DNA of 35,348 bases from an uncultured Bacteroidales bacterium. Its GTDB lineage: Bacteria > Bacteroidota > Bacteroidia > Bacteroidales > F082. The notes below the pieces were generated by a model that was given only the letters and a program-made list of their open reading frames with translations, was not told where the DNA came from and made no database searches. The stretch is from assembly GCA_900318465.1 (NCBI GenBank), contig ONKQ01000042.1:1-35348 (forward strand), given 5' to 3'. The translations under genes were made by a program, and so were the position numbers. Every line of letters starts with the position of its first letter. Position 1 is the first letter of the stretch. Positions 8,037 through 30,657 of the stretch are shown here, in pieces.

Positions 8037-8157
8037 TATCCCGTTCCTGTATCTGCAAATCTCAAAAATCAAACACGATGAAAATCGCGACTATGGAAGA
8101 TTGCGTATAGCAACATTTAGACAACATAATCATTGTTTAACAAACATAATTTACAAT

Positions 8158-15700: not shown

Positions 15701-18700
15701 GATAACAATGTGCAAACCTATCCCATTCGGGTTGACAATATTTCTTTGGGCTTCTTCTCCACGACAAGTTATGACCTGAAGTTCGGTAAACCGACCAGAA
15801 CGGTTGATATTAACGGCAACGAGATGCGCTACCAATACGATCACATGGGCCGGAACACTGTAATCTTGGCACCATACGAAATAGACGCAGGGCAGACATA
15901 CACCATCAGGATGGAGTATCACCCGAAAAACTACGGCACCTTGAACATTTCCGGTTCTGGCGGACAAAGCTACGCCTGCACCTATCATTATGACTGCCAG
16001 CATCAAAGCGACCCTATCCGCACAACCGTTATCGCAGACGGCCTCGGCAGGATGCTACAGACCAAGAAAGATGCGGAAATTAACGGACATGAGTGGAGTT
16101 TGGTGACAGGTAGGGTGAAGTACGACTGTTTCGGCAGGACGGTCGAACAATACCATCCGTTTAGAGAAGATACTGCATTGTTCGCCACTTACAATCCCTA
16201 TTATTCCTCAGGAACACGAACCGCCACATGGTATGACATTATGGACCGTCAGACTAAATTGAAACTGCCTACCTCAGACAGCACCGTGATGTCTTACGGC
16301 GTGGAGTCTTGGGGTGGCAAGATTCTTTTGCGAACCATCACCAAAGATGCAAAAGGGAACCAGGTAAGGGTGTTGACAGGTACCATGGGACAGCAGATAG
16401 TGCAGATTGATCCTTACGGTTCAGAAACCTCCTTTGAATATGATTGCCTCGGTCAGCTCAAGAAAAGCACAGATCCAGACGGCTTCGAAACTTCATACGA
16501 CTATGACATGGTTGGTCAACTGGTTCACAGAAAGCATCCCGATGCAGGTGATGACCGATACAAATATGACCCAGCGGGGAATTTAATATATCATGATAAT
16601 GCAGCTGGGGAGCATTTGGATTACCGTTACTATTACAACCAGCTGACAGACGTTCTTTGTTCACAATACTCAGCCAACAACGTACACTATGAATACGGCA
16701 CGTACAGCAGCACAAATCTGATCAACAACTCGGTGGGCAAGGTGACAAAGCAGGAGGACGCCTCCGGCTGGCAAACTTTTAAATATGGCAAACTTGGTGA
16801 AGTAACCGAAAATATTCGTACTTTTGCGCTTCCGTATGATGCCCAAACCTATACGTTCAAAATGAATTTCGGATACGACAGCTGGAACCGCATAATGGGA
16901 ATGACCTACCCCGATGGGGAGGTGGTCACGTATGTCTACAACCTCGGCGGTATGCTGAAGAGCATCTCCGGCACAAAGATGAACAACGCCTATCCATACA
17001 TCGACAGCATCCGCTACAACGAGTTCGAGCTGAAAGAGGCGGTGTATTACGGCAACGGCACACGGTGTACATACGGATATGATGTTCTGCAAAGGCTGAC
17101 TGCGTTGGCTTCATATACGGCAAACAACGAGCTGATGCAGATGCTGAGATATGATTACGATGCTGTAAGCAACATCACCGACATAGACAATTCCGCAGGC
17201 ATCCTTGCCAACGGATTGGGTGGGATGTATCACAACCGATACTCGTACGACAACCTGTACAGGCTGGTATATTCGAGAGGCAATTGGCTTGGAAGCCCGA
17301 ACACTAACTATGAACTGGAAATGAGTTATAACCATAACGGACGAATCAGCAGAAAGACTTTAACAGCTGGAATTGTGACGCAGACACCTATGATAAACTC
17401 ATTCAACTCGGTCATCTATAACAATATGTACCACTACACGAATACAAGCCAGCCCAATACGCTGACATACATAGACAACAACGGTCCGCAACAGTTCTTC
17501 CAGTGGGATGCCAAAGGGAATATGACATACCATAAGAACACAGCTGTCTCTTTGGAACGCTTCCTCTGTTGGGACGAGCAGAACCGCCTGCAAGGGGTAA
17601 GGGACAAAAGCTCGCTGTCAGTCTATCAGTATGATGCCAACGGCGACAGGACATACAAGCTGACGGGAGACTACACTTTCCAGAATGTTAGTGGCACATG
17701 GCGGTATTTCTACCAGCTGGACAATGCCACCCTATATGCATCCCCATATTTAGTTGTCACTCCTAAAGGCTACACCAAGCATTATTATGCAGAGAGCGAG
17801 CGCATTGCCAGCAAGCTGGGCAACGGCGGACTACAGGGGCTTGGTCATCCTTTGGCTGACGACATTCAGGTTCACGACAAGTTATTTGCCAATAAGAACC
17901 ACGCCCAAAGCGTGATCTACGAGTGCCTGAACGCGGAAGAGGTGAGGGCATTTTCTCCCTTGTCATACCTTTACGAGTTGACGAGCTCATCTCAGAGCCC
18001 AGAGGACAAGCGCTACTTCTACCACCCCGACCACTTGGGAAGCAGCAGTTGGATTACGTTCACCGACGGTGAAGCTGTCCAGCACCTCCATTACCTGCCC
18101 TACGGCGAAGACTTGGTGAACCAGCAGCACACGGCCGTTGGTGCCATGTACACTTTCAGTGCCAAGGAGAAGGATGCGGAGACGGGTTACTCGTACTTTG
18201 GTTCCCGCTATTACAACTCCGATTTGAGCATTTGGTTGAGTGTGGATCCGATGAGTGACAAGTATCCAAGTATGAGCCCGTATGTTTATTGCGCGAATAA
18301 TCCTGTAAAGTTGGTGGACCCAAATGGGGAGGAGGTATGGATTGTTGGAGATGAATGGGAATCAGCATTTAACAGTTTACAGCAGGGTACAAATTTGGAA
18401 TTATCGATAGAAGATGGAGTGGTGAAAATTGTAGGAGGAAAAGTTCTGAACGACAATGATCAACAATTATATGATGCAATTAATGACAATTCTGTTATTG
18501 CTAAAATTAATGCATCTGATGAAATGCCAGATCCAGAAGGAGGAGAAAATCTTCAAACAACAACTGGACATTGTTACGGTGCCACTTATGATGAGAAAAC
18601 TGGAAAAGCTACTGCAACAAACTATGTCAATATAAGTGGATTGTCTGAGTATGAAAAGCCGGGTGCTGAAGGCGCAGGTATGATGCATGAAGTAACAGAA

Positions 18701-18961
18701 GCTTACGGTATTGGGTGTGCCTCTGTTAGATCAAAAAGAAATATAGCTGCCGCTTTTAGAAGACCTTTTTCAATACAAGGGCCAAACAACACTCCCATAA
18801 ATGGTGAAGCTTATGGACCAGACTATGGGACTTATTTATATTGTCACTCTAAAGCCACACCATCTCCTAATGAAATGAATGCAGAGCAATCTCGAAACTT
18901 CAAGAAACCGTCTCTTCAATATTTGTTGCCTTTAAGTCTTCCAAAATTGAATTATAGATAA
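9755..18961 (+). CDS. Giant SpvB/VCBS/RHS polymorphic toxin-like protein (3068 aa)
   Basis: It begins with one hydrophobic signal/anchor helix (residues 5-22). A SpvB/TcaC-like N-terminal domain starts near 285 ('YPIEIPAGRQGMQPNLALTY'). Asp-rich VCBS/FG-GAP calcium-site repeats ('DLDGDGLADK', 'DVNADGLPDL', 'DLNGDRYPDI', 'DVNGDGLPDK', 'DFNGDGLPDY', 'DINGDGYVDY') lie between about 685 and 1680. RHS/YD repeats run from about 1950 to 2750, then the RHS-associated core ('GSRYYNSDLSIWLSVDPMSDKYP', 'YVYCANNPVKLVDPNG'). The conserved DPNG is at residues 2855-2858. The following ~210 residues are the variable effector region and contain MMHEVTEAYG (His2978, Glu2979, Glu2982), a possible zincin-like HExxE. 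By analogy with Tc toxins and other RHS proteins, the shell should encapsulate the tail. No T9SS domain is seen on this protein, so its export route is unknown. The tail is AT-rich, and a candidate immunity gene starts 9 bp later. Confidence 0.9.
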   Translation: MRQYLLAVIAVLAAIILALFSIDTASNQQSARSYRAYNFKSGLESRAGDQDSALWNDNAGNVNIPTITETVTDNGFSPLTITSSPLNTPPAMLATSAMTELTPVQLPPLDAGMVNVTGGFDGNSQTAGYRVNPRPGEFAIAVPYDPSLLPQGFTEDDIQTYVYDRQYHRWVAVQRDSVNEAELLVCSRFRPWEKGLPHTQNDLANQQDALAQVQDMMSFAPQGEGGGDSPLDFINAVLKTPEMPETSAYTPTSIKELKAADPLEGLTLMQPPTANNSGTANLSYPIEIPAGRQGMQPNLALTYSSGGGNGWLGVGWDISIPSITVETRWGVPRYDQSKESEVYVYEGEQLVTKDGNGNFREMPHRTNQWTSRSTLGNEEQFFPRKNEAFDSIVRHGTGPSNYWWTVTHKNGVTDYYGKYASDNGVNNGCVLRTGADNTSGAIGHWALAESVDPYGNNVRYYYNVAFENVGANGDGGPIGKQIYIDSISYTNTSVEQGKYKVVFNRRNGERQDVIVSANRGFAEVTATNLCNIGVFYNDTTIREYMFIDTIGRCSNYKTRLTDVVRVDRISVKPLGCVGDMSDLAEENTTRTHFDYFDSPQGEGIFGEEQYPYLNDDNVNSWFLTDPASLGNEGSSTALGSTRGKSWNIGGTASVGIGANVAMTSASVGGNFNYSRSKSEGALTLIDLDGDGLADKVFKVGKKLVYRPQIAIDDTTFEYGDTMHIGGLTDFLKEASSTTTWGLQASALLAYNGSWPTTRSTTTTYFSDVNADGLPDLITDDGVMFNVTEPGDRVRFSSFYTIMAENQNAGDAVDSNVVHTSVDTCQGIIFDGEASDSIICFISWIRDTVFNAKEYNNHMPQQVLDFVDSLESTGEYYCEYRYSAHPPRVTDIIVYRKEMECLPIFSQTANSTIVTIPDPDLEAVKVWVPQKAGTVSIRSRLRLLNDSIGGMSQSKWRDGVSYAVQVCRGVTADNDYVLHAISYDTLFTRYVDKDDTTMKDTTFSVYLGLNDLVFFRLISGDNHDFDKVSWQQTITYSGSGSEDQYGVNENYYDSKRDFVVSGRDFFAAPLDENNTFVRVSADIYTTTPYLNNSNHSYQLKAELHRNNANNINKNWNIYNNTLYDHVIMTKNYWGVDSEYFHVGQEDYVLFTIEGPSSQKFDWSKVQIVPHVEYCRLQNGQYVIIQDYYPPVKAEIENYDGTKKDTVYHTLFGPLYRGWGQFAYNNNDTLNGATIHDTHIHVDKLVTDLDMYPHDDNHANNGKYKINHFKDHITNDTENPQESSDMVSCYENAGVYNPIAKTTSWIEMRPDCKNRAWVGYGNINYLTDSIMSNTRLPEYSADTNTIDIEEYDHPIPIVTNHEVKTVRKQNISRIKNHSLSLSAIPVISVGMTHSRGENIILTDYMDLNGDRYPDIVGQSLVQYSNPWGGIGNPVPMGPMADGITKSETTSGGVNFGGSFQMPTRGASNNPKGSKISFDGSGNVGADLGRGSDNTVFSWMDVNGDGLPDKVSVDGQGYAFVSLNTGYGFQTKTLWGNFPIRDGDSENASMSFGANFNVGQASIGGGMGVNFSRNHTQKMLMDFNGDGLPDYVMKGGNGLMVRYNIGGGNWSGWENVNNVSNISFGRSYSESINASVTLGFTFFSILKVCAGISGSPYSRSFSRDSVQLTDINGDGYVDYVTSDYENEMIVRYNKSGKTNLLRKVTNFTGSSFEMDYDMPLSSFDKPQRSWNLAGVVVSNNDTLCPVGGNRTFTSFEYSEPNYNRVERMDYGYHTVISYQYNTENHDNLYRLTVEEFNNQDFTKRGRKIRDCIYDAAWNPYIEHLYDAIVYDFSGSEVSENGCARADVYVGVESDLTNWYEGHSTAQVTSRIVRRYDRYRNVTEYIHYGDTTHHDEWFKAEIEYAAGMQHNLVALPVQIVVKNYSGNTMQKRTASYYPTGKLQQLVRHNSSGNAQYDFTYDTYGNVSSAMMPQNLNGQRLQFTYQYDNNVQTYPIRVDNISLGFFSTTSYDLKFGKPTRTVDINGNEMRYQYDHMGRNTVILAPYEIDAGQTYTIRMEYHPKNYGTLNISGSGGQSYACTYHYDCQHQSDPIRTTVIADGLGRMLQTKKDAEINGHEWSLVTGRVKYDCFGRTVEQYHPFREDTALFATYNPYYSSGTRTATWYDIMDRQTKLKLPTSDSTVMSYGVESWGGKILLRTITKDAKGNQVRVLTGTMGQQIVQIDPYGSETSFEYDCLGQLKKSTDPDGFETSYDYDMVGQLVHRKHPDAGDDRYKYDPAGNLIYHDNAAGEHLDYRYYYNQLTDVLCSQYSANNVHYEYGTYSSTNLINNSVGKVTKQEDASGWQTFKYGKLGEVTENIRTFALPYDAQTYTFKMNFGYDSWNRIMGMTYPDGEVVTYVYNLGGMLKSISGTKMNNAYPYIDSIRYNEFELKEAVYYGNGTRCTYGYDVLQRLTALASYTANNELMQMLRYDYDAVSNITDIDNSAGILANGLGGMYHNRYSYDNLYRLVYSRGNWLGSPNTNYELEMSYNHNGRISRKTLTAGIVTQTPMINSFNSVIYNNMYHYTNTSQPNTLTYIDNNGPQQFFQWDAKGNMTYHKNTAVSLERFLCWDEQNRLQGVRDKSSLSVYQYDANGDRTYKLTGDYTFQNVSGTWRYFYQLDNATLYASPYLVVTPKGYTKHYYAESERIASKLGNGGLQGLGHPLADDIQVHDKLFANKNHAQSVIYECLNAEEVRAFSPLSYLYELTSSSQSPEDKRYFYHPDHLGSSSWITFTDGEAVQHLHYLPYGEDLVNQQHTAVGAMYTFSAKEKDAETGYSYFGSRYYNSDLSIWLSVDPMSDKYPSMSPYVYCANNPVKLVDPNGEEVWIVGDEWESAFNSLQQGTNLELSIEDGVVKIVGGKVLNDNDQQLYDAINDNSVIAKINASDEMPDPEGGENLQTTTGHCYGATYDEKTGKATATNYVNISGLSEYEKPGAEGAGMMHEVTEAYGIGCASVRSKRNIAAAFRRPFSIQGPNNTPINGEAYGPDYGTYLYCHSKATPSPNEMNAEQSRNFKKPSLQYLLPLSLPKLNYR

Positions 18962-20768: not shown

Positions 20769-21710
20769 TCACATCCTACTCCTTGGATGATGGTTCGTCA
20801 ACACATCCCGTTGTCGCACGGAATTGACGTGCATGTATATCTGTGTTGTGGAGATGGAGCTGTGGCCTAAAATATGCTGAATTGTAAAGACATCCACATT
20901 CTCCTCTAACAGTAGTGTGGCAAACGTGTGTCTGAACGTGTGCGGGGTTACATTTTTAACAATGTTACACTCCTTTGCCATTTGATGCACCAGTAATCGG
21001 ACTATCTGAGGGGAGAGACCACGTCCTAAACGATTCGTAAAAAAAAGAGCACTCGAATCAGCAGACGTTTTGCGCACCTGCACCCATTCTTGCAATGCCG
21101 TCAATGTCACAGGCATGCAAACGTCCACTATTCTCTCCTTATTCCCTTTCCCAATGATGTGGACTAAGCCATGTTCCAAATCAACATCGCAATTCCGCAG
21201 TCCGCACAGCTCTCCGATACGCATCCCTGTCCCGAACAGCAGCTCAAACACCGCTCTGTTACGCACTGCCAGTTTATGACTTTGAGTGGAGCCTTTCCCT
21301 GATTGTACATTCTCGTTCAGAAGTGCAAATATCCGTCCTGTCTCTGCCTTAGTCATCACGACAGGCAACCTTTTAGGCTCTTTTAGTTTAATCCGTACTC
21401 GCCTCACGGGATTGTCGAAATCTTCAAACACCCATTCCATATAGCGCATAAAAGCGTTCACCGAGGCAATCTTTCGTTTCATTGTCCTGAACTTGTAGGC
21501 CGAGATATTCTCCAGCCAACATTGTATATCGTCCCGCTTGACATTTGCCACCAGTGTCTCTGATCCGTTTGCCAATAGTGATGCGAATTGAACAATATCG
21601 CACTGATAAGCCGATATGGTCTTTTCATCCAATTTCCGTTCAAAGCGGCAGTGACGCTTGAAGTCGTCCAAAGCAGAAGTCATTGTCGTTTGTTCCAAAG
21701 CATTTATCAT
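20769..21710 (-). CDS. XerC/D-type tyrosine recombinase, probable DNA invertase
   Basis: The 313-residue protein (an alternative Met lies at residue 10) has an N-terminal SAM-like core-binding domain (about 10-95) and a catalytic domain with the expected residues: Arg in 'TGMRIGEL', Lys in 'GKGNKERI', His-x-x-Arg in 'HTFRHTFA', His in 'LGHSS', and the nucleophile Tyr in 'TTQIYMHV'. It is compact like the Tsr/Mpi-type invertases of Bacteroidales, and it lacks the long N-terminus of the integrase at 29488. The gene reads away from an inverted repeat 41 bp from its start codon, and the second copy lies 3.3 kb on. The likely job is inversion of 21752-25123. A weak leftward -7-like TATCTTGC lies at 21726-21733. 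Confidence 0.85.
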   Translation of the reverse strand: MINALEQTTMTSALDDFKRHCRFERKLDEKTISAYQCDIVQFASLLANGSETLVANVKRDDIQCWLENISAYKFRTMKRKIASVNAFMRYMEWVFEDFDNPVRRVRIKLKEPKRLPVVMTKAETGRIFALLNENVQSGKGSTQSHKLAVRNRAVFELLFGTGMRIGELCGLRNCDVDLEHGLVHIIGKGNKERIVDVCMPVTLTALQEWVQVRKTSADSSALFFTNRLGRGLSPQIVRLLVHQMAKECNIVKNVTPHTFRHTFATLLLEENVDVFTIQHILGHSSISTTQIYMHVNSVRQRDVLTNHHPRSRM

Positions 21711-21751: not shown

Positions 21752-21780
21752 GAACTAACGATAATGCACGATTATGGATA
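21752..21780 (+). repeat. Left 29-bp inverted repeat (recombination site)
   Basis: It is identical in inverse orientation to 25095-25123, and identity stops at the next base on both sides. Its centre ATAAT-GCACG-ATTAT (21761-21775) has inverted arms around a 5-nt spacer, as in tyrosine-recombinase sites. The spacer lies 3 bp before the ATG at 21774. Confidence 0.85.
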
Positions 21781-24134
21781 TATTTATTGACCGAAGGATA
21801 GAGAGACGAAAGCTATTGTCGGAGATTCAACAGCAACATGTCAAATCTCAAGTCATACTGATTTCAGCTCCTTCTGGCATAGGGAAGTCTCGGCTTGTTG
21901 ATTATGTAGTCAATGAGTCTGGTTACAAGATACCTTATCGTGTTAATATATATGAGAGCGAATTGTCGGAAACTGTGGACGGCTATTTCTTTAGGAAAAT
22001 AACCCGACTATTTTCCAATAACGCAGAAAAATTTTGGGGGCTTAAGTCATTCCCTTGGTTTGTTCAACATCATGATTTGGTTGGAACAACTTTAAGAGTT
22101 GGTATCCGTCACATTGCACCATCAATAGGGAACGAGATTAGCCAAGTCAAAAACACGATGCGTGACGTCGATTCTTGGCTTGAAAATAATGACCATTATT
22201 TGAATCTTGCCAAAGAATATATCATTAGTATACTGGATTCTCTATCCGAACGCATAGTGCTTGCTTCAATAGAAAATGTTCAAGGTATTGATACGGTGTC
22301 TCTGAATTATATTGTTGATGTAGTGGATAAATCCAAGAATTTTTTACTGTTTTTGGAATTTACTCAACCAAAATCAAGATTGTCGGAATTTGATGTTTGT
22401 GAGAAATTTCGAGAAAAAGGGATAGAAGTTAGTCCATACTCGCTAGACAAACTCCCTAAAGAAGAAATTCTTAAGGAGATGTCAATCAACAAATTATACG
22501 AATTGATCAGTGACACGTATGACAATTCTGACGGTAATCTATTTAAACTCAGGATATTATGGGATACGTCAGAAAGTTCTTTACAAAGCATAACCTACCA
22601 AGAAACAATTACAGCATCTTTAGAACATTTAACTGAGCCCGAGAGAATCATTCTTTCATCTATCGAATTGCATCAAGGGTTGTTGTCTTATGACAAACTT
22701 GCAGAATTGTCTTCTGCCGTAATCATTAATCCTGAAGAAAAAAAATCATTAAAAGACCATTTGGATTATCTGTGCAAAGTTGGTTTACTAAAAAGTATCG
22801 GGTTTGATTATATGTTAGCACATGATAGTATCGTATCTGAGATTCGAAATAGCAAAAGATTCAAAAGAACTATTGCTTTTTCGATTAATTTATGGATGAA
22901 ATATTATCAGCTTCAAGATGATTCTCTAGAAATTACCAAAGAGCAACGTTTCAACAATGACAAGCAAGTGCTTTTTCTTGCATTAAGAAAGAAGGATTAC
23001 GCGGTTTTTGCTGAAAAATTGGGAAAAATAGACCACTTGCTTCAAAAGTTTCCGATTTCGAAGCTTGTCTTATATTTAGATACGTTAATCAAACAGTACG
23101 AGCAAGAGAAATCCGATTCGGATTATGATCAGATTATTTATCGTCACTGTCTTTTTATTTTTTATCAGTGCGGGCAGTTTAATCAAGTCATAGCCTTAGG
23201 GGAAGAGCGTGTAGAATTTTTTGATTCTGTAGCCAAAATATGCTACATTGCTGCTTTGTCCAGTGAAAATCAAACAAAAGCCGAAACTTTATTAAGGAAA
23301 TGGTTTGTGAAAAAAGAGACAGAACAAATAGAGTTGGCTTTGCAGTTAGTGAAGATTAGATTACTACGTGCTAAGGGTGACATTAAGGGTTGTAGAAGAT
23401 TATGGGAAATGATTGATCGAAACCAATCATACAACGGGTCGATATTGAAGGGGGATATATGCCGATATGTATCTTTGTGTGTGATGGATGATTATGATCT
23501 TAGAATAAATAAACAACGTGAAGCCTATAAATCGTATGAAAACAACAATCGAACATATGGTAAAACGGCCTCAGCTTTGATTTTAGCCAGGGATTACTGC
23601 TTTTTGCATCTTATTGATGAATCAAGAATGTGGATGGAAAATGCACGAAAATTACTGGAAACATCGCTGTATCCAAGGTATCAATACTATAACAATGCAG
23701 GATTATTACAGTTGTTTTCTGACTCATATAATTCCGCTATTAGCTATTTTGATCGTGCGTTAGAAACATGTACCAACTCTGACGATATTATCCTTATAGA
23801 ATCTAACAAACTTTCTGGCTATATTTTAACCAACAATCATTCAGCATATGTGGACGATCTATTCATGCATCTATACCATGAATATCAACTTCATAATCAT
23901 ATTGTTTCAGATGAACTTTTGTACAATTGCTACAACTATGCTATACAGGGAGAGCACCATGAAATAGTTAGTGATTTACAAAAGTCATACGACTGTCTTG
24001 TGGGCAAGATTAAAAATTCTAAAGGCGTATATTTCAATCTATCATCCCTATTACAATATGTTGATAGTCGATGCCTGCCTGTCTTTGTTATTGATTGGGA
24101 TATAGATTTCTATAACGTTCTAAACAATTCATAA
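21774..24134 (+). CDS. STAND-like NTPase with helical (TPR-like) C-terminus (786 aa)
   Basis: An N-terminal P-loop APSGIGKS is at residues 32-39, with a possible Walker B strand near 160 ('RIVLASIEN'). A winged-helix-like stretch at about 280-350 ('ITASLEHLTEPERIILSSIEL', 'YLCKVGLLKSIGFDYMLAHDSI') follows the NTPase as in STAND/AAA_16 proteins. From about 400 to the end the protein is all-helical with TPR-like periodicity ('NAGLLQLFSDSYNSAISYFDRALE'). STAND proteins act as signal-triggered switches, including anti-phage sensors; the output here is not evident. The first two codons (Met-Asp) are encoded by the inverted repeat and shared with the opposing gene. No TAnnTTTG box lies in the 60 bp upstream, so the gene is probably silent in this orientation. 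Its last 47 bp overlap the ATP-grasp gene tail to tail. Confidence 0.75.
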   Translation: MDIFIDRRIERRKLLSEIQQQHVKSQVILISAPSGIGKSRLVDYVVNESGYKIPYRVNIYESELSETVDGYFFRKITRLFSNNAEKFWGLKSFPWFVQHHDLVGTTLRVGIRHIAPSIGNEISQVKNTMRDVDSWLENNDHYLNLAKEYIISILDSLSERIVLASIENVQGIDTVSLNYIVDVVDKSKNFLLFLEFTQPKSRLSEFDVCEKFREKGIEVSPYSLDKLPKEEILKEMSINKLYELISDTYDNSDGNLFKLRILWDTSESSLQSITYQETITASLEHLTEPERIILSSIELHQGLLSYDKLAELSSAVIINPEEKKSLKDHLDYLCKVGLLKSIGFDYMLAHDSIVSEIRNSKRFKRTIAFSINLWMKYYQLQDDSLEITKEQRFNNDKQVLFLALRKKDYAVFAEKLGKIDHLLQKFPISKLVLYLDTLIKQYEQEKSDSDYDQIIYRHCLFIFYQCGQFNQVIALGEERVEFFDSVAKICYIAALSSENQTKAETLLRKWFVKKETEQIELALQLVKIRLLRAKGDIKGCRRLWEMIDRNQSYNGSILKGDICRYVSLCVMDDYDLRINKQREAYKSYENNNRTYGKTASALILARDYCFLHLIDESRMWMENARKLLETSLYPRYQYYNNAGLLQLFSDSYNSAISYFDRALETCTNSDDIILIESNKLSGYILTNNHSAYVDDLFMHLYHEYQLHNHIVSDELLYNCYNYAIQGEHHEIVSDLQKSYDCLVGKIKNSKGVYFNLSSLLQYVDSRCLPVFVIDWDIDFYNVLNNS

Positions 24135-25101
24135 CTATAAGTTCAACTGCTTGTTTGAACTCATAGCCCTCAAATGAAATAGCCTTGAAAAAAGCACCAT
24201 CAGGAGCTAATGTTGTATCTTGGGACAATTCAAAACAGTAAAACTTATTGTTAAAAAGTTTACCATCAATACGCATATATTCTACTTTATCTAATGAATC
24301 GAATAGCTCAAACAGGTTTGACATCATAGAGTCCGTCAAGAGATGCTTAGTATTTCTCAATAAGATGGTGTCATTGATTTTGTCTTGATGACTATGTAGG
24401 TGGTTTTCGAAATACGACTCGTCTCCTGGAGAATAACGTTCCACCGCCCCCCATACTTTAATATGATTTCTCCATCCTATTATACTGACGCTTATTTCCT
24501 TGCCTGGTATAAATTGTTCGACAATAACTTGTTCCCCTAAGTTTTCATATATTTCATTGACCTTGTCGGCAACAGCATGAGGATCTGGAGAAATGATCAG
24601 ATTGTTTTGCGAAATTCCAATAGAAGAACCTTCGAAATTTGGTTTAATTATTAGTGGAAATTTTAGTTTAGGGAGTTCCTGAACTGTAATACACTTATTA
24701 AAACTGATACTTTCTGGGACGAAGACACCGTTCATTTTACACACATCCTTTGCAAGTACTTTGTCACAGCAAATAATATTTGTATAAGTATCAGCACCAA
24801 CATATCTTATACCAGCTGCTTCACAAACGGCTGACACTAAGGCTTGCTTGTTTCGCGATTTCTCACCATGCCAATATGGAAACACCAAATCTTTAACATG
24901 TTCTGACGAATTAAATGTAAATTTTTCTGCTGAATCGTAGAAGACAACTTCGTTTGCGATTGTTTCGAGAGCTGATTTGATGGCCGACACATTGTTCGAC
25001 TGGGCCTTGTCTGAGTCAAGGTAATATAAATCATTTGGCAATCCTTCACTCGGGGCGTTATCAGCAATTAAGACAATCCTATTAAAAGCAATACTATCCA
25101 T
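24088..25101 (-). CDS. ATP-grasp ligase related to D-Ala-D-Ala ligase (337 aa)
   Basis: The order of motifs fits ATP-grasp: an N-terminal Rossmann-like part ('NRIVLIADNAPSEG'), 'CDKVLAKDVCKMNGVFVPES', the ATP-binding 'FPLIIKPNFEGSSIGI', 'VIVEQFIPGKEISVSIIG', and the metal-site region 'YMRIDGKLFNNKFYCFELSQD'. In true D-Ala-D-Ala ligases the last motif is Glu-x-Asn; here it is Glu-Leu-Ser, so the substrate or metal coordination may differ. It could ligate amino acids or modify a peptide or protein. The first codons Met-Asp lie in the inverted repeat. A canonical leftward -7 box at 25169-25176 indicates it is the expressed gene in this orientation. It overlaps the STAND gene by 47 bp at the 3' end. 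Confidence 0.75.
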   Translation of the reverse strand: MDSIAFNRIVLIADNAPSEGLPNDLYYLDSDKAQSNNVSAIKSALETIANEVVFYDSAEKFTFNSSEHVKDLVFPYWHGEKSRNKQALVSAVCEAAGIRYVGADTYTNIICCDKVLAKDVCKMNGVFVPESISFNKCITVQELPKLKFPLIIKPNFEGSSIGISQNNLIISPDPHAVADKVNEIYENLGEQVIVEQFIPGKEISVSIIGWRNHIKVWGAVERYSPGDESYFENHLHSHQDKINDTILLRNTKHLLTDSMMSNLFELFDSLDKVEYMRIDGKLFNNKFYCFELSQDTTLAPDGAFFKAISFEGYEFKQAVELIVMNCLERYRNLYPNQ

Positions 25102-25123
25102 AATCGTGCATTATCGTTAGTTC
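25095..25123 (-). repeat. Right 29-bp inverted repeat (recombination site)
   Basis: It is the exact reverse complement of 21752-21780. It contains the start codon of the ATP-grasp gene (25099-25101). Confidence 0.85.
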
Positions 25124-25168: not shown

Positions 25169-25176
25169 CAAACATA
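25169..25176 (-). promoter_or_regulatory. Fixed promoter outside the invertible segment (TATGTTTG, leftward)
   Basis: Plus-strand CAAACATA reads TATGTTTG, a full TAnnTTTG match followed by CAGCG. It lies 46 bp outside the right inverted repeat and 68 bp upstream of the ATP-grasp start, so it would drive whichever gene is placed there. Confidence 0.65.
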
Positions 25177-25594: not shown

Positions 25595-26656
25595 CTAAAA
25601 CAGCCAATGCTTGGGCCTGAATCCTGCAGGAAAGCCAAAGGAAACCAGTATGTCGTCCAGTGTCCGTTCCTTGGCTTTCCATTCTTTGCACTGTTGCTCC
25701 TTCACAAAGTCGCAAATCAGGTCGCCGATGTCATATCCGCTGCCGTCCGCCCCGATTTCTTCCGCGTAGAGGTGTGCGCAGTCCTCAACCCCCGCAATAT
25801 GCTTGGCCGCGTTAACCCTCCATTGACGGCCTGCCTTGTCGCTGTCGGGGAACAGGTAAACGTCTCTGCCTCCCAAAAGCGTGCGGTCGCTGTCAAGTGT
25901 GCTTTGGAGGAAGGTTGCACCGCCCGTGGCCAGAAACGCGTAGTCGCTGAAGATCCCGTACTGCCTGCGGGCGCACTCGCAAAGCAGTGCGCTCTTCTCG
26001 CTCTCCACAACCGCGATTCTCGCGGCCGTGCAGCCGATTGCGTGCCGCAACCCGAAAAGATGCTTGGCGGGGTTGTAGCCGTCAATTCTCAGTGTGTTGT
26101 GCGCCCAGTACATCGTCTTCCCCTTGTCACGGTGGCCGTCGGACTTGTACGGTATGATACGGGCGGTGGTGGCCGTTCCGTCCTCGCTGAACTGCCAGAA
26201 GGCCACACGGCAATTGTCAACAGCGCTTGCACCATATTCGTTCCACACATTGTCGGTCAAATCTTTCCCGAACATGGAATAGAACCATTCTTTCAGACAG
26301 TTGCGGACACCGTTGGCCCTCCACACCTCCCATCTGTTGTTCATCGGGATAAGGGCTGTTTCGGCGCATTCCTGCGTGTGGACGGTGTGTCGGAAGTGTC
26401 TTGTTTTGGACGAGGTGTCCTTGTCGGGGAATTTTTCATACCCGCAGCTGTTCACGCGGTCGCATTTTCCCGCCAGGGTGTCACGGCTCCAGTCCCCTGC
26501 AAAATGATCCCAGTATCGGCTGAACTTCCCTTTGTGGCCGCATTGTGGACAGCAGAACTTCACCGTTTTTCCCGTCAAGGGGTTCTTGCTGGTCAGCTGG
26601 TACCGTTGAGCTCCGTATGGGACAATCCGCCTTCCCTTGTCTGCCGTCATTGCCAT
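25595..26656 (-). CDS. Toprim/zinc-ribbon primase-like protein (353 aa)
   Basis: An N-terminal zinc ribbon ('FCCPQCGHKGKF' with a second Cys set in 'GKCDRVNSCGYEKF', about residues 33-75) is followed by a toprim-like fold: 'RIAVVESEKSALL' (the Glu motif) and 'DVYLFPDSDKAGRQW' (Asp-x-Asp). This matches Bacteroidales mobile-element proteins often annotated as DUF6371/toprim domain proteins, thought to be DNA primases or topoisomerase-like replication factors. No helicase domain is attached; the neighbouring RepA-like ATPase, which ends 18 bp upstream, could supply it. It is the last gene of the leftward xis-rep-primase operon. Confidence 0.8.
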   Translation of the reverse strand: MAMTADKGRRIVPYGAQRYQLTSKNPLTGKTVKFCCPQCGHKGKFSRYWDHFAGDWSRDTLAGKCDRVNSCGYEKFPDKDTSSKTRHFRHTVHTQECAETALIPMNNRWEVWRANGVRNCLKEWFYSMFGKDLTDNVWNEYGASAVDNCRVAFWQFSEDGTATTARIIPYKSDGHRDKGKTMYWAHNTLRIDGYNPAKHLFGLRHAIGCTAARIAVVESEKSALLCECARRQYGIFSDYAFLATGGATFLQSTLDSDRTLLGGRDVYLFPDSDKAGRQWRVNAAKHIAGVEDCAHLYAEEIGADGSGYDIGDLICDFVKEQQCKEWKAKERTLDDILVSFGFPAGFRPKHWLF

Positions 26657-26674
26657 TGTGCGTATGGGATGTAG

Positions 26675-27853
26675 TTAGTTGTCATGCTTTTTGTATAGTT
26701 TCGGGTTATGGCTTTTCCCGCTGGCACTCAGCACCTCCTCCAGAAAGCCCTGCCGGATGAAGCTGCACAATTCATTGCGGAATTGCTTTTCGGACAGGGA
26801 ATCGCCCCCTCCAAGTTCCTTTCTCGCCTTTGCGTGCGCCTCCTCCAGTTCATTCTTTGTGAACGCGGTCTTGCCGGGGTTGGAACCCTGCGCCCTGTCG
26901 ATCATCGCCTTGCACATGTCGCCGTCACTGACCTTGGGAGGTTCGTAGGGGATGGACAGCTCCAGTCTCCCGTCGTCCTTGTGCGTGATGTGGAATGTCT
27001 CGAAAGGCGCATTCCGCGTGTGCTGTGCCGTCACGATGGAGGACGAGCCGATGTCTTTCGCCTTTTCCACCATGTACACCGTTTCGGCCTTCCGCTCGTA
27101 CTCGCTCCCCAGATGGCCGCGGCCTTTTTTCACATTGCTTTCGGTGTTGTGCAATATCGCAATGATGTGTGAGTCGGTCTTCTCCGCGAGTTCCATGAGC
27201 AGGCTTAGCATCTGCGAGGATTCGGTGTTGTTGTTGGTATCCGTGACCAAATCGGCCACCCCGTCAATGAATGCCACATTCGGTCTGTTGTTGAGCATGT
27301 GGTCAACAATCAGGAACAGTCGTCCCCTGCTGTTCTCTTCGCGGAGACGCATATAGGTGAGGTTTCCCTTCTGGACTGCGGTCAGACCGTCGGTTATACG
27401 GTTCCGCATCTTCGCGGAATGATAGTTGCTCTGCTCTGTGTCGAAATAGGTCACGGTCGGTGACGGGATGTCGCTTGTGACAACGCTGTCTTCCCAGCCG
27501 TCATCACCGTTATATGCCAGCAGTTCTTTCGCCATCATGATAGCCAGTGACGTTTTCCGGCTCTTTGCACCGCCGAATATCAGGGAGAGGTCGCCGCACG
27601 ACCCGGTCCGAACACCTTTAATTCTGACAGCTGCGGGCGGCGGGTTCCGGATTAGGCGTTCCGCATCCTGTTCAGTCATTATGCAGCCGCCATCCGATTG
27701 CGTACAGCAATCCCCATCCCATTCGAGATGCTTGTGTATCAGACTGGTCGCCCCGCTGTCTCTTGGGCTGTCGGTCTTCGGGGGCGGGATGGCCGTCCGC
27801 TCACCCCTTATTATTGCGCCAAGGGCACTTCGGTTTTCCAAAGTGGTTTCCAT
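26675..27853 (-). CDS. RepA-like AAA ATPase (392 aa)
   Basis: It contains a P-loop variant 'FGGAKSRKTSLA' (around residues 93-104), where Arg replaces the usual Gly before Lys-Thr; this substitution is familiar in Bacteroidales RepA/AAA_25-type proteins. A Walker B strand 'NVAFIDGVADL' and a sensor-like 'SHIIAILHNTES' follow. A C-terminal helical segment from about 310 probably mediates DNA or protein contacts. Related proteins are hexameric replicative helicases of plasmids and integrative elements. It lies between the excisionase-like gene (28 bp gap) and the toprim protein (18 bp gap), so all three are likely co-transcribed. Confidence 0.8.
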   Translation of the reverse strand: METTLENRSALGAIIRGERTAIPPPKTDSPRDSGATSLIHKHLEWDGDCCTQSDGGCIMTEQDAERLIRNPPPAAVRIKGVRTGSCGDLSLIFGGAKSRKTSLAIMMAKELLAYNGDDGWEDSVVTSDIPSPTVTYFDTEQSNYHSAKMRNRITDGLTAVQKGNLTYMRLREENSRGRLFLIVDHMLNNRPNVAFIDGVADLVTDTNNNTESSQMLSLLMELAEKTDSHIIAILHNTESNVKKGRGHLGSEYERKAETVYMVEKAKDIGSSSIVTAQHTRNAPFETFHITHKDDGRLELSIPYEPPKVSDGDMCKAMIDRAQGSNPGKTAFTKNELEEAHAKARKELGGGDSLSEKQFRNELCSFIRQGFLEEVLSASGKSHNPKLYKKHDN

Positions 27854-27881
27854 AACGGTATGCAGGCGTATTCGTTATGCC

Positions 27882-28175
27882 TTATCTAAAATGGTTTGCG
27901 CAATACTGCTCCGCCTGCTGCTGTAGTTCCTCCGCCGTGGGCACCCTGTGTGACAGCAGCCATTGCTCCACCTCCTCGCGTTTGAAATAGGTGCGCTTCC
28001 CGCCGGGGGATTTGTAGTGCGGGATTCTGCGCAGGTGTACCAGTCTGTAGATGTAGTTCTTGCTCATCCCTGTGAGTTCGGCCACATCGTCCATCGTCAG
28101 GACGATTTTGGAGTTGCTCATGGCCTGGGCTTGCTTTCTGACTTCTTCCATTAATAGTTGCAGTTCATTGTTCAT
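27882..28175 (-). CDS. Excisionase-family helix-turn-helix protein (97 aa)
   Basis: The MerR/Xis-like winged HTH is clear: 'LTMDDVAELTGMSKNYIYRLVHLRRIPHYKSPGGKRTYFKREEVEQWL'. In Bacteroidales elements this protein helps excision and/or activates downstream genes. The frame extends upstream to 28220, but a -7-like box at 28201-28208 lies inside that extension, so the start at 28175 is preferred. It heads the leftward replication operon. Confidence 0.85.
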   Translation of the reverse strand: MNNELQLLMEEVRKQAQAMSNSKIVLTMDDVAELTGMSKNYIYRLVHLRRIPHYKSPGGKRTYFKREEVEQWLLSHRVPTAEELQQQAEQYCANHFR

Positions 28176-28200
28176 GTCTTTTGGGTTTAGAATTATGCCG

Positions 28201-28208
28201 CAAAAGTC
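28201..28208 (-). promoter_or_regulatory. Putative -7 box for the xis-rep-primase operon
   Basis: On the minus strand GACTTTTG matches TAnnTTTG except the first base and is followed by CGGC. Confidence 0.4.
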
Positions 28209-28307
28209 AGAAAAAAGCAAATTTGTAATATGAAGTTATTGCATAACTCCATATTCGTAATGCATTACGGGATTATGCCTTTTTATTTGGCAATCAACGT
28301 GTTGCAT

Positions 28308-29498
28308 TTATAAAAAACTTTTCGGAGACAAAGATTTTCGATCCTTCTGCGAGGCGGTGAAAGCCGTGAAGCACCTGTCGATTAACCTTGTTATCTCATC
28401 CTCCCTCGGGTTGTCGCTTGACTGGAGGGACTTTCTGTTGAACAATCGTTTGAATTTGCCCCAGGGTGCTCTTTGAGGGGTGTCCGAAATCCTCATTTCA
28501 AGCAATTCGGAAACCTTGACGGCAAAATACGCTATGTATATCGTGGAAACAGTTTTCCCCCTGTAGAGTTTGGTCTTTTCCCACTCAAAATGTTGTTGGT
28601 CGTCACTGACTCTTATGAGACCTTTGAGTATCGCAAACCGGAACAAGTCTTCCGCCCTCTTCTCGTTCGGTTTATACAGTTCGGCCACCAGTTCCCAAAC
28701 CGATTGGGGTTGCCCCAATGTTTCGGGTTGGTTCGCGGCATCATCTTGGTTGTGGGTGCCGTTCTCTTCGGCGGCGGGTTCTGTAGTGCCCTCATTCGCG
28801 TTGCCGCCATTGTCACCGTCGGCAGGACAAGGGCTTGTTTCGGTCTCGCATTCGTAACCGAGCAATGGTTCGTACTCGCCAGTGAATATATCCAGCACAT
28901 CCAGGCATTCGATGTATTCGTTGCTCCAAAAATACTTCATTGAGGGTCTTCCACAAGAAATCCCCCTCGTGATCTTTTCAAGTTTTCTGGCATATTCCAT
29001 AAGACTGTCGCCATCGTTGTTGACGATATATTCAACAAGCGGGCAGAAACAATCTTCGAATTGGTCAGCGAACTCCTTGACTGATTCCAACATGTCCACG
29101 GTTTCAGGATAAAACTCTGTCCGCAACCATTCATTAAACGGGGGGAATGCGTTCGTCAGTTTCCCAACCATTTCCCACGCCAATTCTTCTTCCATGCCGA
29201 AGACCAGATAATCTTTCCAATCGGGGAAGTGGGCGGCTAATCCCTCGCTGAGATTCGGTATGTTCCAATGTTCATCATCTTTCATTAAGTCAACCAACCA
29301 TTCCGTAAAGACATCGTAATTCTCTCTTTCCGTGTCTCCAAAGTCCAATTTCCCTGTTGCTTTTAATTCCGCCTCCAACACTGCTATTGGCTTGTAGTCA
29401 AAATCAGCGAAATCATTCAACGCTTCCAAGTGGGTGAAACAGATGCTCTCAAGTTTCGCAAACGCCTTGAGCATATCCATTTTCGTCTTAATCTTCAT
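28308..29498 (-). CDS. Unknown mobile-element protein (396 aa)
   Basis: It overlaps the end of the integrase gene by 11 bp and has a strong ribosome-binding site (AAGGAGGAGACG then ATG on the minus strand), so the two are translationally coupled. The product is acidic and helical. It has two parts: an N-terminal region to about residue 225, and a C-terminal region from about 265, joined by a low-complexity linker rich in Asn, Glu and Gly. The C-terminal part ('KRAEDLFRFAILKGLIRVSDDQQHFEWEKTKLYRGK') looks like a module seen downstream of integrases in Bacteroidales elements, but I cannot name a function. No catalytic motif is recognised. Confidence 0.7.
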   Translation of the reverse strand: MKIKTKMDMLKAFAKLESICFTHLEALNDFADFDYKPIAVLEAELKATGKLDFGDTERENYDVFTEWLVDLMKDDEHWNIPNLSEGLAAHFPDWKDYLVFGMEEELAWEMVGKLTNAFPPFNEWLRTEFYPETVDMLESVKEFADQFEDCFCPLVEYIVNNDGDSLMEYARKLEKITRGISCGRPSMKYFWSNEYIECLDVLDIFTGEYEPLLGYECETETSPCPADGDNGGNANEGTTEPAAEENGTHNQDDAANQPETLGQPQSVWELVAELYKPNEKRAEDLFRFAILKGLIRVSDDQQHFEWEKTKLYRGKTVSTIYIAYFAVKVSELLEMRISDTPQRAPWGKFKRLFNRKSLQSSDNPREDEITRLIDRCFTAFTASQKDRKSLSPKSFL

Positions 29499-30657
29499 CG
29501 TCTCCTCCTTTCGTCTTGAAGATGTCGCTCACTTTGTTGACTGCCTCTATTTTCGCGCTGTTCACCACCTCGGCGTAAATCTGGGTGGTTCTGATTTCGG
29601 TATGGCCCAGCAGCTTGCTGACCGTGTACAGGTCAACCCCCGCGGTCAGGTTAAGTGTGGCAAACGTGTGCCGCGCCGTGTGGAATGTGATGTTGCGGTC
29701 AGTTATCCTTGCCGCCTCCGTCCACCTGTGGATATGTTTGTTGACGATTCCGTGGGAGGGGAGTGTGAACACAAACTCCTCTCTGTCGGCTCTCGGAGGC
29801 AGATTCTTGACCGCCGCATCCGACAGCGGCAGATACAGGGGCTCGGATGTCTTCTGCTGATAAATCTCCACCATGGGTGTCTTGTTGACCGTCTTGATGT
29901 GCTTCCATTGCAGGTTTTTGATGTCGCACAGCCTCAACCCGCAGAAGCAACTGAACAGGAAGGCGGAACGGACATCCTTGTTCATTTCGCATTCCGTCTC
30001 CATCAAAGTCTTCACCTCCTCGATGGTCAGGTAGGTGCGTTTCGTCTTGGCGCGGGTGAGCTTGTCGCTCCTCTCCAGAAGCCAGCAGGGGTTGGACGGT
30101 ATCAGTTCGCGTTTGAACGCCACGTTCAGGATGGAGACCACTATCCGCGAATATATGGAGGCCGTGTTGGCGCTCAGCTTCTGGCCGTTCGCCTGGACAC
30201 AGTCGTTTTTCAGATAATTGTTGAAACCTTGGACGAACTTTTTGTCCACATCGCACAACCTTACATCCTTGCCCCCGTATTTCAGGAGCATTTCCCCGAC
30301 TCTTCGGGTCACGCTCCTCAAGCTGCGGCTCTTCGTCTCCAGCGACTTCTGGTATTCCTCAAGCCACACGCTCAGGAGGATTTTCCCCTTGTGCTTGTTG
30401 ATTCCCGCCTTCCCCATGGTCAGCTCCTCGATCCGTTTGGCCTTGATTGCCGTGGCCGCCTCCAGTGTCGTGCGGTTCTGTATTCTGTCGGCGGGTGTCC
30501 GTTCAGGGATGAGGTAAAGCCGCAGAAACTCTTTCGGCTGCCGTTTACCGTCCGTGTAGGTGTCCAGATAGATGCTCCGGTTTCCGTTCGCCAGTTCCTT
30601 GAATCTGATTCTCACCGGCTCCTTGACTTTCTGATACTGTTTCTTTGCCATAGACAT
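29488..30657 (-). CDS. int: Tyrosine integrase of the integrative element (389 aa)
   Basis: It has an arm-binding N-terminus (about 1-90), a SAM-like core-binding domain (about 95-200) and a catalytic domain with Arg in 'CGLRLCDI', Lys in 'QQKTSEP', His-x-x-Arg in 'HTARHTFA', His in 'LGHTE', and nucleophile Tyr in 'TTQIYAEV'. Length and N-terminal domain match Bacteroidales phage_int_SAM_5-type integrases, unlike the shorter invertase at 20769. The start at 30657 (Met-Ser-Met) or the next Met at 30651 are both possible. The gene is nearest parC, pointing into the element. Confidence 0.9.
   Translation of the reverse strand: MSMAKKQYQKVKEPVRIRFKELANGNRSIYLDTYTDGKRQPKEFLRLYLIPERTPADRIQNRTTLEAATAIKAKRIEELTMGKAGINKHKGKILLSVWLEEYQKSLETKSRSLRSVTRRVGEMLLKYGGKDVRLCDVDKKFVQGFNNYLKNDCVQANGQKLSANTASIYSRIVVSILNVAFKRELIPSNPCWLLERSDKLTRAKTKRTYLTIEEVKTLMETECEMNKDVRSAFLFSCFCGLRLCDIKNLQWKHIKTVNKTPMVEIYQQKTSEPLYLPLSDAAVKNLPPRADREEFVFTLPSHGIVNKHIHRWTEAARITDRNITFHTARHTFATLNLTAGVDLYTVSKLLGHTEIRTTQIYAEVVNSAKIEAVNKVSDIFKTKGGDDED

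What the first reader, a model, noticed from the sequence alone, without database searches (positions are those of the whole stretch)
21752..25123. Inversion switch that exchanges two whole genes: STAND NTPase versus ATP-grasp ligase
Two convergent, unrelated genes each begin inside the same 29-bp sequence, present as perfect inverted repeats. The repeat core (ATAAT-GCACG-ATTAT) has tyrosine-recombinase-site symmetry, with its spacer 3 bp upstream of both ATGs. A tyrosine recombinase lies just outside on the left. A canonical promoter box lies just outside on the right (25169-25176), and none was found on the left. Inversion would move the STAND gene to the promoter and silence the ATP-grasp gene. 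Most known Bacteroidales inversions flip promoters or shuffle 3' ends; alternating two complete enzymes with fused 5' ends and overlapping 3' ends is unusual. The pairing of a STAND sensor with an ATP-grasp ligase may be an undescribed phase-variable defence or modification system.
Basis: partly seen in the sequence, partly recalled or inferred. Interest (0 to 1): 0.95.

Follow-up and report, generated by a model that had tools for sequence, protein, structure and literature searches.

The report
Flip switch exchanging two whole genes
A small DNA cassette holding two unrelated genes head to head appears to be turned around by a neighbouring recombinase, so that now one gene and now the other faces the outside control region; similar flip cassettes with other gene pairs, some resembling bacterial immune genes, turned up in three bacterial phyla.

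Summary
In detail: a perfect 29-bp inverted repeat (21752-21780 / 25095-25123) bounds convergent STAND-like (21774-24134) and ATP-grasp (24088-25101) genes, both starting inside it, with a tyrosine recombinase 41 bp outside. Relatives support the switch reading. Two Aliarcobacter plasmids share recombinase and flanks at 99.9-100% identity, but their 3458-bp STAND/ATP-grasp cassette lies in opposite orientations, breakpoints in the repeat. The same-genus relative G009 also has the other orientation. In G087 two contigs of 117 and 169 kb both end at the repeat, though repeats of 27-43 bp inside them did not break assembly. The unit is general: switch recombinases separate from XerC/D controls (98/92), and 12 of 20 Bacteroidota genomes found with one show both sites around a cassette (7 contigs end on the cassette side, 1 has a single site). 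Cargo differs and, where near-identical flanks could be compared, changes exactly between the repeats: STAND|ATP-grasp, methyltransferase|GNAT, glycosyltransferases|STAND, twice Thoeris-like ThsA|TIR. Shown: inversion and cargo replacement in relatives. Inferred: exclusive expression, defence role. Nine full-text searches found no description. New variant of a known kind.

The parts
20769..21710 (-). tyrosine recombinase, 313 aa, Xer-like, divergent from the cassette; presumed invertase
   Evidence: R164, K188, H257, R260, H283, Y292 (numbering of this protein; catalytic roles recalled) invariant in the 13 aligned switch recombinases; separate from XerC/D controls
21752..21780 (+). left inverted repeat, 29 bp; core GATAAT (21760-21765) - spacer GCACG (21766-21770) - ATTATG (21771-21776)
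25095..25123 (-). right inverted repeat, 29 bp, identical on the minus strand
21774..24134 (+). STAND-like NTPase with TPR-like C-terminal part, 786 aa; starts inside the left repeat; recombinase-side gene in this assembly (presumed silent)
24088..25101 (-). ATP-grasp ligase of the D-Ala-D-Ala ligase superfamily, 337 aa; starts inside the right repeat; far-side gene in this assembly (presumed expressed)
24088..24134 (.). 47-bp overlap of the two 3' ends
25169..25176 (-). Bacteroidota-type -7 box TATGTTTG (consensus recalled) reading into the cassette from the far side; candidate fixed promoter
   Evidence: sequence

Best explanation
The locus is a reversible two-gene DNA-inversion switch. The Xer-like recombinase pairs the two short palindromic sites (GATAAT-N5-ATTATG), exchanges strands in the short centre and turns the 3.3-kb segment around. 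Each gene starts inside its repeat, so inversion keeps both ORFs intact and only changes which gene faces the far-side flank, where a fixed promoter is thought to lie. In this assembly the ATP-grasp gene faces it; after inversion the STAND gene would. The same chassis, with cognate sites, occurs in Bacteroidota, Campylobacterota and Bacillota, and its cargo pair changes as a block between the sites, most simply by recombinase-mediated cassette exchange. Shown: sites, recombinase, opposite orientations in near-identical relatives, block replacement of cargo in relatives. Inferred: which gene is expressed, that this recombinase is the invertase, and that the cargo serves conflict or immunity (STAND-like, Thoeris-like and TIR cargo in sister cassettes).
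For: (1) Natural inversion: pM830MA and pACRY43158 have flanks at 100% (985 bp) and 99.9% (5581 bp), while the 3458-bp segment between the repeats is inverted at 99.9%, breakpoints inside the 17-bp repeat. (2) Same-genus relative G009 has STAND 52% and ATP-grasp 74% identical; its recombinase start lies beside the ATP-grasp gene, not the STAND gene, and that flank is nearly identical to those of the recombinase genes of G041, G087 and G090. (3) The repeats co-vary: the spacer differs between systems (GCACG, AACAG, AGGTA, AGGAT, TATTT and others) but is the same at both sites of every system with both sites in hand. (4) Assembly forks: in G041 and G087 both flank contigs, and in G388 the far-side contig, end 4-9 bp past the site core; in G087 these are 169-kb and 117-kb contigs, and repeats of 27-43 bp inside them did not break assembly. 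(5) The five recurring cargo pair types were each seen in both orientations relative to the recombinase (hand tally, see full report), e.g. STAND|ATP-grasp with ATP-grasp far in 4 loci and STAND far in 4. (6) Cargo replacement ends in or within a few bases of the repeats. (7) Controls: 17 XerC/D loci give best repeat scores 11-14; loci with both sites score 17-39, L160 only 16.
Against: No reads or expression data: inversion in the window's own population is untested. Promoter placement is weak: the TAnnTTTG box was found on 4 of 13 far sides and 0 of 13 recombinase sides, so 9 far sides lack it too; L104 and L160 were not given to that count, and L086's far side is close behind another gene. 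In about half the loci the recombinase reads into the cassette, so its transcript could also express the near gene. Thoeris needs ThsA and a TIR partner together (recalled), which fits poorly with strictly exclusive expression. A repeat score of 17 or more is not proof by itself: L164, a recombinase hit without a matched core pair, has unrelated repeats scoring 19 and 18. In L081 and L089 one gene's listed ORF starts 74-300 bp inside the repeat, so 'starts at the site' is not universal.
Confidence: 0.86

Rival explanations
1. Both partner genes are needed together and both are expressed; inversion only exchanges a strong far-side promoter for a weak recombinase-side one, tuning the ratio of the two partners instead of choosing one.
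For: Conserved pairs look like functional partners: ThsA with a TIR protein in two cassettes, methyltransferase with a GNAT-like protein in three phyla, STAND with ATP-grasp in eight loci. In about half the loci the recombinase reads into the cassette and could co-transcribe the near gene.
Against: In the divergent loci, the window among them, some 40 to 170 bp lie between recombinase start and repeat, and no TAnnTTTG box reading inward was found in 150 bp (0 of 5 divergent loci). A ratio change would not obviously need convergent genes that start at or near the sites.
Confidence: 0.3
2. The sites mainly serve mobility: the segment is a captured cassette, the recombinase an Xer/integron-like integrase, and inversion a by-product of paired inverted sites.
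For: Cargo is replaced between the sites in Aliarcobacter and in S. salivarius megaplasmids; one locus has a recombinase with a single site and no cassette (G046); the sites resemble Xer dif cores (recalled).
Against: Two sites in inverted orientation favour inversion over excision. Most cargo genes start at or near the sites, which mobility does not require. Integron-integrase models score far below cut-off (125.8 against 265 bits).
Confidence: 0.2
3. The repeat is a conserved regulator-binding site, not a recombination site.
For: It overlaps both gene starts.
Against: Two near-identical plasmids differ by exact inversion between the repeats; spacers change between systems but match within each pair; a distinct recombinase group lies beside them.
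Confidence: 0.02
4. The opposite orientations are assembly artefacts.
For: Draft metagenome contigs end at the repeats.
Against: The two Aliarcobacter plasmids are described as complete sequences and the repeat there is only 17 bp; in G087 repeats of 27-43 bp inside the same contigs did not break assembly. The assemblers and reads were not available.
Confidence: 0.04

Closest known systems
Ureaplasma mba/UU376 and UU172/UU171 alternating loci (PMC3047005, passages read)
   Same: DNA inversion at inverted repeats switches expression between two neighbouring, oppositely oriented ORFs; XerC-type recombinases are proposed (PMC3599477, abstract start only).
   Different: There a 5' coding region (membrane anchor) is fused to either surface-protein ORF; here both ORFs are complete and share little more than the start codon, the cargo is enzymes and immune-type proteins, and the recombinase is encoded beside the cassette.
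Phage Mu G-segment / Gin and related tail-fibre inversion (recalled)
   Same: Convergent gene sets inside an invertible segment take turns before an outside promoter.
   Different: Serine recombinase; alternative versions of one function; not exchangeable unrelated pairs.
Mycoplasma vpma switching (named in the passages of PMC3047005; PMC2268961 abstract start only; Xer1 recalled)
   Same: Site-specific inversions link a silent gene to one active promoter.
   Different: A family of related lipoproteins rather than one pair of unrelated genes.
Bacteroidales invertible promoters (PMC12118408, passages read)
   Same: Tyrosine-type invertase, short inverted repeats, phase variation in the same order.
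   Different: The promoter inverts there; here the genes invert.
Thoeris defence system
   Same: Sister cassettes L082 and L108 hold a nearly full-length ThsA match (PDLC00407, 1.1e-96 and 2.7e-97) and a TIR protein.
   Different: The window's cargo is not Thoeris; in the sister cassettes the two genes are convergent inside an inverted-repeat cassette rather than in one operon (usual operon form recalled).

Membership tests
Site-specific inversion switch (tyrosine recombinase) | inverted recombination sites with identical centre flanking the segment | tested here: met
   29-bp perfect repeat
Site-specific inversion switch (tyrosine recombinase) | adjacent tyrosine recombinase with intact catalytic-type residues | tested here: met
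   (residue roles recalled)
Site-specific inversion switch (tyrosine recombinase) | both orientations exist in nature | tested here: met
   in relatives: plasmids; G009; in the window's own population not testable without reads
Site-specific inversion switch (tyrosine recombinase) | fixed outside promoter on one side only | tested here: inconclusive
   far side 4 of 13, recombinase side 0 of 13, background 8.6% of 150-bp windows; L104 and L160 not given
Site-specific inversion switch (tyrosine recombinase) | orientation changes expression | not testable with these tools
   no RNA data
Ureaplasma mba-type alternating locus | 5' coding region fused to either ORF | tested here: not met
   only the start codon and the few bases after it in the repeat are shared
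XerC/XerD chromosome-dimer resolvases | passes the curated XerC or XerD cut-off | tested here: not met
   236.3 against 335.15 and 218.2 against 329.6 bits; on the other side of a supported branch from 14 Xer controls
Integron | IntI-type integrase above cut-off | tested here: not met
   125.8 against 265 bits
Thoeris (window cargo) | ThsA and ThsB proteins | tested here: not met
   no PADLOC hit for STAND, ATP-grasp or recombinase
Thoeris (sister cassettes L082, L108) | ThsA protein | tested here: met
   PDLC00407 over positions 7-477 and 3-474 of 478
Thoeris (sister cassettes L082, L108) | ThsB-type TIR partner | tested here: inconclusive
   both partners have Pfam TIR; for L082 the ThsB model gives 5.4e-9 over 100 positions while another candidate model, PDC-S66, scores higher (1.2e-13); the L108 partner was not given to PADLOC
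D-alanine--D-alanine ligase | passes a curated Ddl cut-off | tested here: not met
   none of the 25 of 45 NCBIfam models shown passes; best 91.3 bits against 404 (PRK14571.1); superfamily membership by Dala_Dala_lig_C 45.6 against 24

The most novel reading that the evidence does not exclude
A cross-phylum family of recombinase-borne flip cassettes splits the two partners of an immune-type module onto opposite strands so that no DNA orientation gives both at full strength; a cell is armed only just after a flip (old partner protein persisting, new one being made) or when it holds both orientations on sister chromosomes or plasmid copies. Immunity would then be a transient property of a switching minority, and the same recombinase would exchange whole modules by cassette exchange.
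Probability: 0.15. Interest if true: 0.97.

Novelty: new variant of a known kind. Interest (0 to 1): 0.88.

Why it matters
Phase variation by inversion is mostly known for promoters, surface antigens and specificity subunits (from recall and the papers seen here). Here one chassis (recombinase plus two dif-like sites) goes with whole unrelated gene pairs, spans at least three phyla, and carries cargo that includes Thoeris-like and STAND-like proteins. If expression is exclusive, defence surveys that score such gene pairs as present would misjudge when they are active. If both partners are needed, the arrangement is a new way to gate a costly module. The site rule ([GA]ATAA[TC]-N5-[AG]TTAT beside this recombinase group) gives a simple way to find further two-gene modules, including unknown ones.

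Tried and rejected
Operator-only and assembly-artefact readings: rejected. Integron or XerC/D membership: rejected on cut-offs. A leader hairpin downstream of the far-side box looked appealing in three flanks but none stood out from shuffles (z -0.22, -1.37, -0.79), so it is not claimed. STAND protein against plasmids: no match. ATP-grasp alignment against IMG/VR: 59 pattern matches, none a relative. ATP-grasp against phages: three weak hits, not followed. STAND profile against solved structures: none at E <= 0.01. ATP-grasp profile: best hits D-Ala-D-Ala ligases, which gives no substrate. One genome-contig scan gave only one contig, which has the length and match of the G009 contig. No structure prediction was run.

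Rows dropped or not examined. Recombinase searches of plasmids reached the 5000-record limit; of the 40 rows shown in each I opened six non-Aliarcobacter hits (H52-H56, H58), and all six have a cassette, two of them (L045, L049) identical; the other rows were not opened. Among the eight best IMG/VR recombinase hits: L157 has both sites; L160 has a 16-bp repeat, no better than the best of the weaker hits, so it is doubtful; L158 and L159 end at the site; L161 and L163 have no site; L164 has a core without a matching partner and unrelated repeats scoring 19 and 18; L162 has a 39-bp repeat pair (95% alike) with the same core in what looks like a different, phage-type invertible region. As weaker-hit control 36 of the 72 remaining loci were scored (best 16). 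Phage-record hits L107 and L109 show no cassette; L108 does. In one search L104 and L160 were left out. The first recombinase tree had three control rows translated on the wrong strand; it was rebuilt and only the second is used; it contains some switch recombinases whose cassette is truncated, missing (L088) or doubtful (L160), and three long branches (L046, L106, L044). In the survey searches at most five candidates per genome were scored in most rows, so the counts may be low.
Full report
Observation. Between 20769 and 25123 lie, in order, a tyrosine recombinase (minus), a 29-bp sequence, a STAND-like gene (plus), an ATP-grasp gene (minus) and the same 29-bp sequence inverted. The repeat is perfect, is the strongest inverted repeat reported for the window, and was found nowhere else in the 3.67-Mb genome. 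Both genes start in it and their 3' ends overlap by 47 bp.

Genes. The recombinase matches Phage_integrase at 1.7e-41 and the N-terminal SAM-like domain. It scores below the curated XerC and XerD cut-offs. The ATP-grasp protein belongs to the D-Ala-D-Ala ligase superfamily (45.6 bits against a cut-off of 24) but lies far below the Ddl and Van cut-offs shown; the nearest solved structures by sequence are D-Ala-D-Ala ligases. The STAND label is weak from Pfam alone but is backed by homology: 3e-12 to an Aliarcobacter protein whose AAA_22 hit just passes the curated cut-off. PADLOC gave no match for the three proteins.

Same pair elsewhere. Of 199 related genomes (the own one included), four matched the STAND protein; only G000 and G009 had full-length matches. 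In G009 (by its public twin a water-buffalo-cecum MAG) the pair has the same convergent form, STAND 52% and ATP-grasp 74% identical. Its repeat has similar arms but another spacer (AACAG for GCACG), again the same at both ends. The bases after the ATP-grasp-side repeat begin a protein like the window recombinase, and this flank is nearly identical to those upstream of the recombinase genes in G041, G087 and G090. So there the recombinase sits by the ATP-grasp gene; in the window it sits by the STAND gene.

Direct inversion. A plasmid search with the ATP-grasp protein led to Aliarcobacter cryaerophilus. A near-identical system lies on pM830MA and pACRY43158. Comparing the two: 985 bp on the recombinase side are identical, 5581 bp on the other side are 99.9% identical, and the 3458 bp between match at 99.9% only in reverse. 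Breakpoints lie in the 17-bp repeat AATAAT-AGGAT-ATTATA. pACRY43158 carries a second, diverged system in which a tRNA-editing-domain protein precedes the ATP-grasp gene.

Signs of mixed orientation. In G041 and G087 both flank contigs end 9 or 4 bp past the site core; in G388 the far-side contig ends 5 bp past it. In G087 the two contigs are 169 and 117 kb. Besides the end repeat they contain other repeats (23 stretches in all at k = 27, the end repeat counted; 18 at k = 31; 6 at k = 41; none at k = 56) that did not break the assembly. This is what both junctions in one population would give; the assembler and reads were not available, so it is an inference. In G064, G061 and G009 both sites lie on one contig.

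The chassis is general. A profile of seven recombinases over 396 related genomes gave 13 genomes with a hit at 362 bits or more, and then a gap to 256 bits. A 13-row profile over 395 genomes of the phylum gave 8 at E <= 1e-80, G000 among them. Of these 20 genomes, 12 have both sites around a segment (G000, G293, G102, G064, G061, G278, G745, G503, G472, G442, G567, and G460, whose segment has no ORF of 100 aa), 7 have contigs that end on the cassette side (G041, G087, G090 and G482 4-12 bp past the site, G097 within it and G228 about 30 bp past it, both read by eye, G388 107 bp past it), and 1 has a single site without cassette (G046). G009 is extra, as only the start of its recombinase is held. 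Plasmids and other records add Aliarcobacter, S. salivarius / S. equinus and Paenibacillus, an unverified phage-type record from human faeces (L108) and an IMG/VR contig (L157). In a tree of 26 switch and 14 Xer control recombinases the switch group is one side of a branch, support 98/92.

Site. The systems with both sites in hand share [G/A]ATAA[T/C]-N5-[A/G]TTAT (read). The inner half-sites recall the Xer dif core (recalled). The spacer varies between systems but matches within each pair. In Streptococcus and Paenibacillus the repeat runs on through a Shine-Dalgarno-like stretch (read by eye), so it would supply translation signals to either gene. Controls: best repeats beside 17 XerC/D genes score 11-14 (one control contig is only 3.9 kb) and beside 36 of the 72 weaker IMG/VR recombinases at most 16; loci with both sites score 17-39, L160 only 16. 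L164 shows that unrelated repeats can reach 19, so the core and the gene layout, not the score alone, make the case.

Cargo. STAND|ATP-grasp: window, G009, L038, L039, L041, L046, L080, L157 (L039 and L041 are one system on two plasmids), with a tRNA-editing protein beside ATP-grasp in L038 and L080. Methyltransferase|GNAT-like protein: L042, L045 (L049 identical to it), L086 (only the L042 partner has a Pfam GNAT hit, the others by homology). Glycosyltransferases|STAND: L081 (also a TIR protein), L089, L102 (with an Mrr-AAA protein). SIR2-STALD|TIR, i.e. Thoeris-like: L082 and L108. Lycopene-cyclase-like|331-333-aa protein: L100, L106. Others: polyprenyl synthetase|330-aa protein (L044; L047 99.6% identical there), SHMT-like|STAND-TPR (L048), EamA|methyltransferase (L103), 288-aa|spermidine-synthase-like (L105). 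In L081 and L089 one listed ORF starts 74-300 bp inside the repeat; elsewhere starts lie at or near it. Relative to the recombinase each of the five recurring pair types was seen both ways: STAND|ATP-grasp with ATP-grasp far in window, L038, L041, L046 and STAND far in G009, L039, L080, L157; methyltransferase far in L042 and near in L045 and L086; TIR far in L082 and near in L108; lycopene-cyclase-like far in L100 and near in L106; glycosyltransferases far in L089 and L102 and near in L081. This tally was made by hand and the annotation tables.

Cargo replacement. A. cryaerophilus and A. faecis plasmids share recombinase and flanks while the genes between the repeats differ; homology stops at 6004 and resumes at 9420 in L041, whose repeats are at 5985-6001 and 9426-9442. 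In S. salivarius megaplasmids three different pairs occupy one locus; homology with L044 stops at 3895 and resumes at 5906-5907, inside the repeats. Exchange by the recombinase is the simplest reading; homologous recombination in the flanks is not excluded.

How it works. Shown: two sites, a recombinase group that goes with them, inversion between near-identical replicons, cargo replacement. Inferred: the recombinase catalyses it; the far flank holds the promoter. TAnnTTTG occurs in 150 bp of far flank in 4 of 13 Bacteroidota loci (window, L082, L080, L089) against 0 of 13 on the recombinase side, background 8.6%; of three further far-side contigs those of G041 and G087 have one and that of G388 has none, and the G041 and L082 flanks are close relatives, so not independent. 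In the window the ATP-grasp gene would be on. In about half the loci the recombinase reads into the cassette and its own transcript might express the near gene, which weakens exclusivity there.

Function. The cargo points to conflict and immunity, but only some sister cassettes back this by models. The Thoeris-like pairs pose the main puzzle: partners needed together (recalled) sit where one flank faces only one of them. Either both are expressed at different levels, or arming depends on the flip itself; neither was tested.

Literature. Nine full-text searches returned no description of such cassettes that I could see in their listings; preprints and most subscription journals are not held. 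Passages were read in PMC12118408, PMC3047005, PMC5903667, PMC8138268 and PMC7365950; other papers were seen only as listings or abstract starts. The closest is the Ureaplasma alternating locus.

Verdict. Alternation of two genes by inversion is a known kind; a cross-phylum, cargo-swapping chassis that carries whole unrelated genes, Thoeris-like ones among them, is a new variant of it.

Noticed in passing
window 25595-30657: Right of the switch lie DUF6371/zinc-ribbon and AAA_25-like proteins and a second recombinase-type match (29554-29946), which look like an integrative or mobilizable element next to the switch.
   Followed up: no
window 9755-18961: One uninterrupted ORF of 3068 aa; identity not examined.
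   Followed up: no
L082 2183-4379 and L108 6527-8700: Thoeris-like ThsA and TIR genes in convergent orientation inside an inverted-repeat cassette beside a switch recombinase.
   Followed up: partly
L104 7127-8918 (G460): Two matching sites and a recombinase ORF around a segment without any ORF of 100 aa, with a second, nested 40-bp inverted repeat: apparently a decayed cassette.
   Followed up: no
L088 near 10025 (G046): Switch recombinase with a single site and no cassette: an empty or collapsed locus.
   Followed up: partly
L039 939-988, likewise L041 and L042, recombinase side of the repeat: An extra inverted copy of part of the site lies between recombinase and repeat and could pair with it (I10); possible attenuator or further binding site.
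   Followed up: no
L162 10326-13695: Phage-type contig with a 39-bp inverted repeat (95% alike) containing the same site core, probably another kind of invertible region.
   Followed up: no
L039 1937-4407: The STAND gene lies in two ORFs in pM830MA but in one in pACRY43158.
   Followed up: no
L044, L045, L048 about 7235-8513: An annotated PezAT toxin-antitoxin pair follows the switch recombinase on S. salivarius megaplasmids.
   Followed up: no
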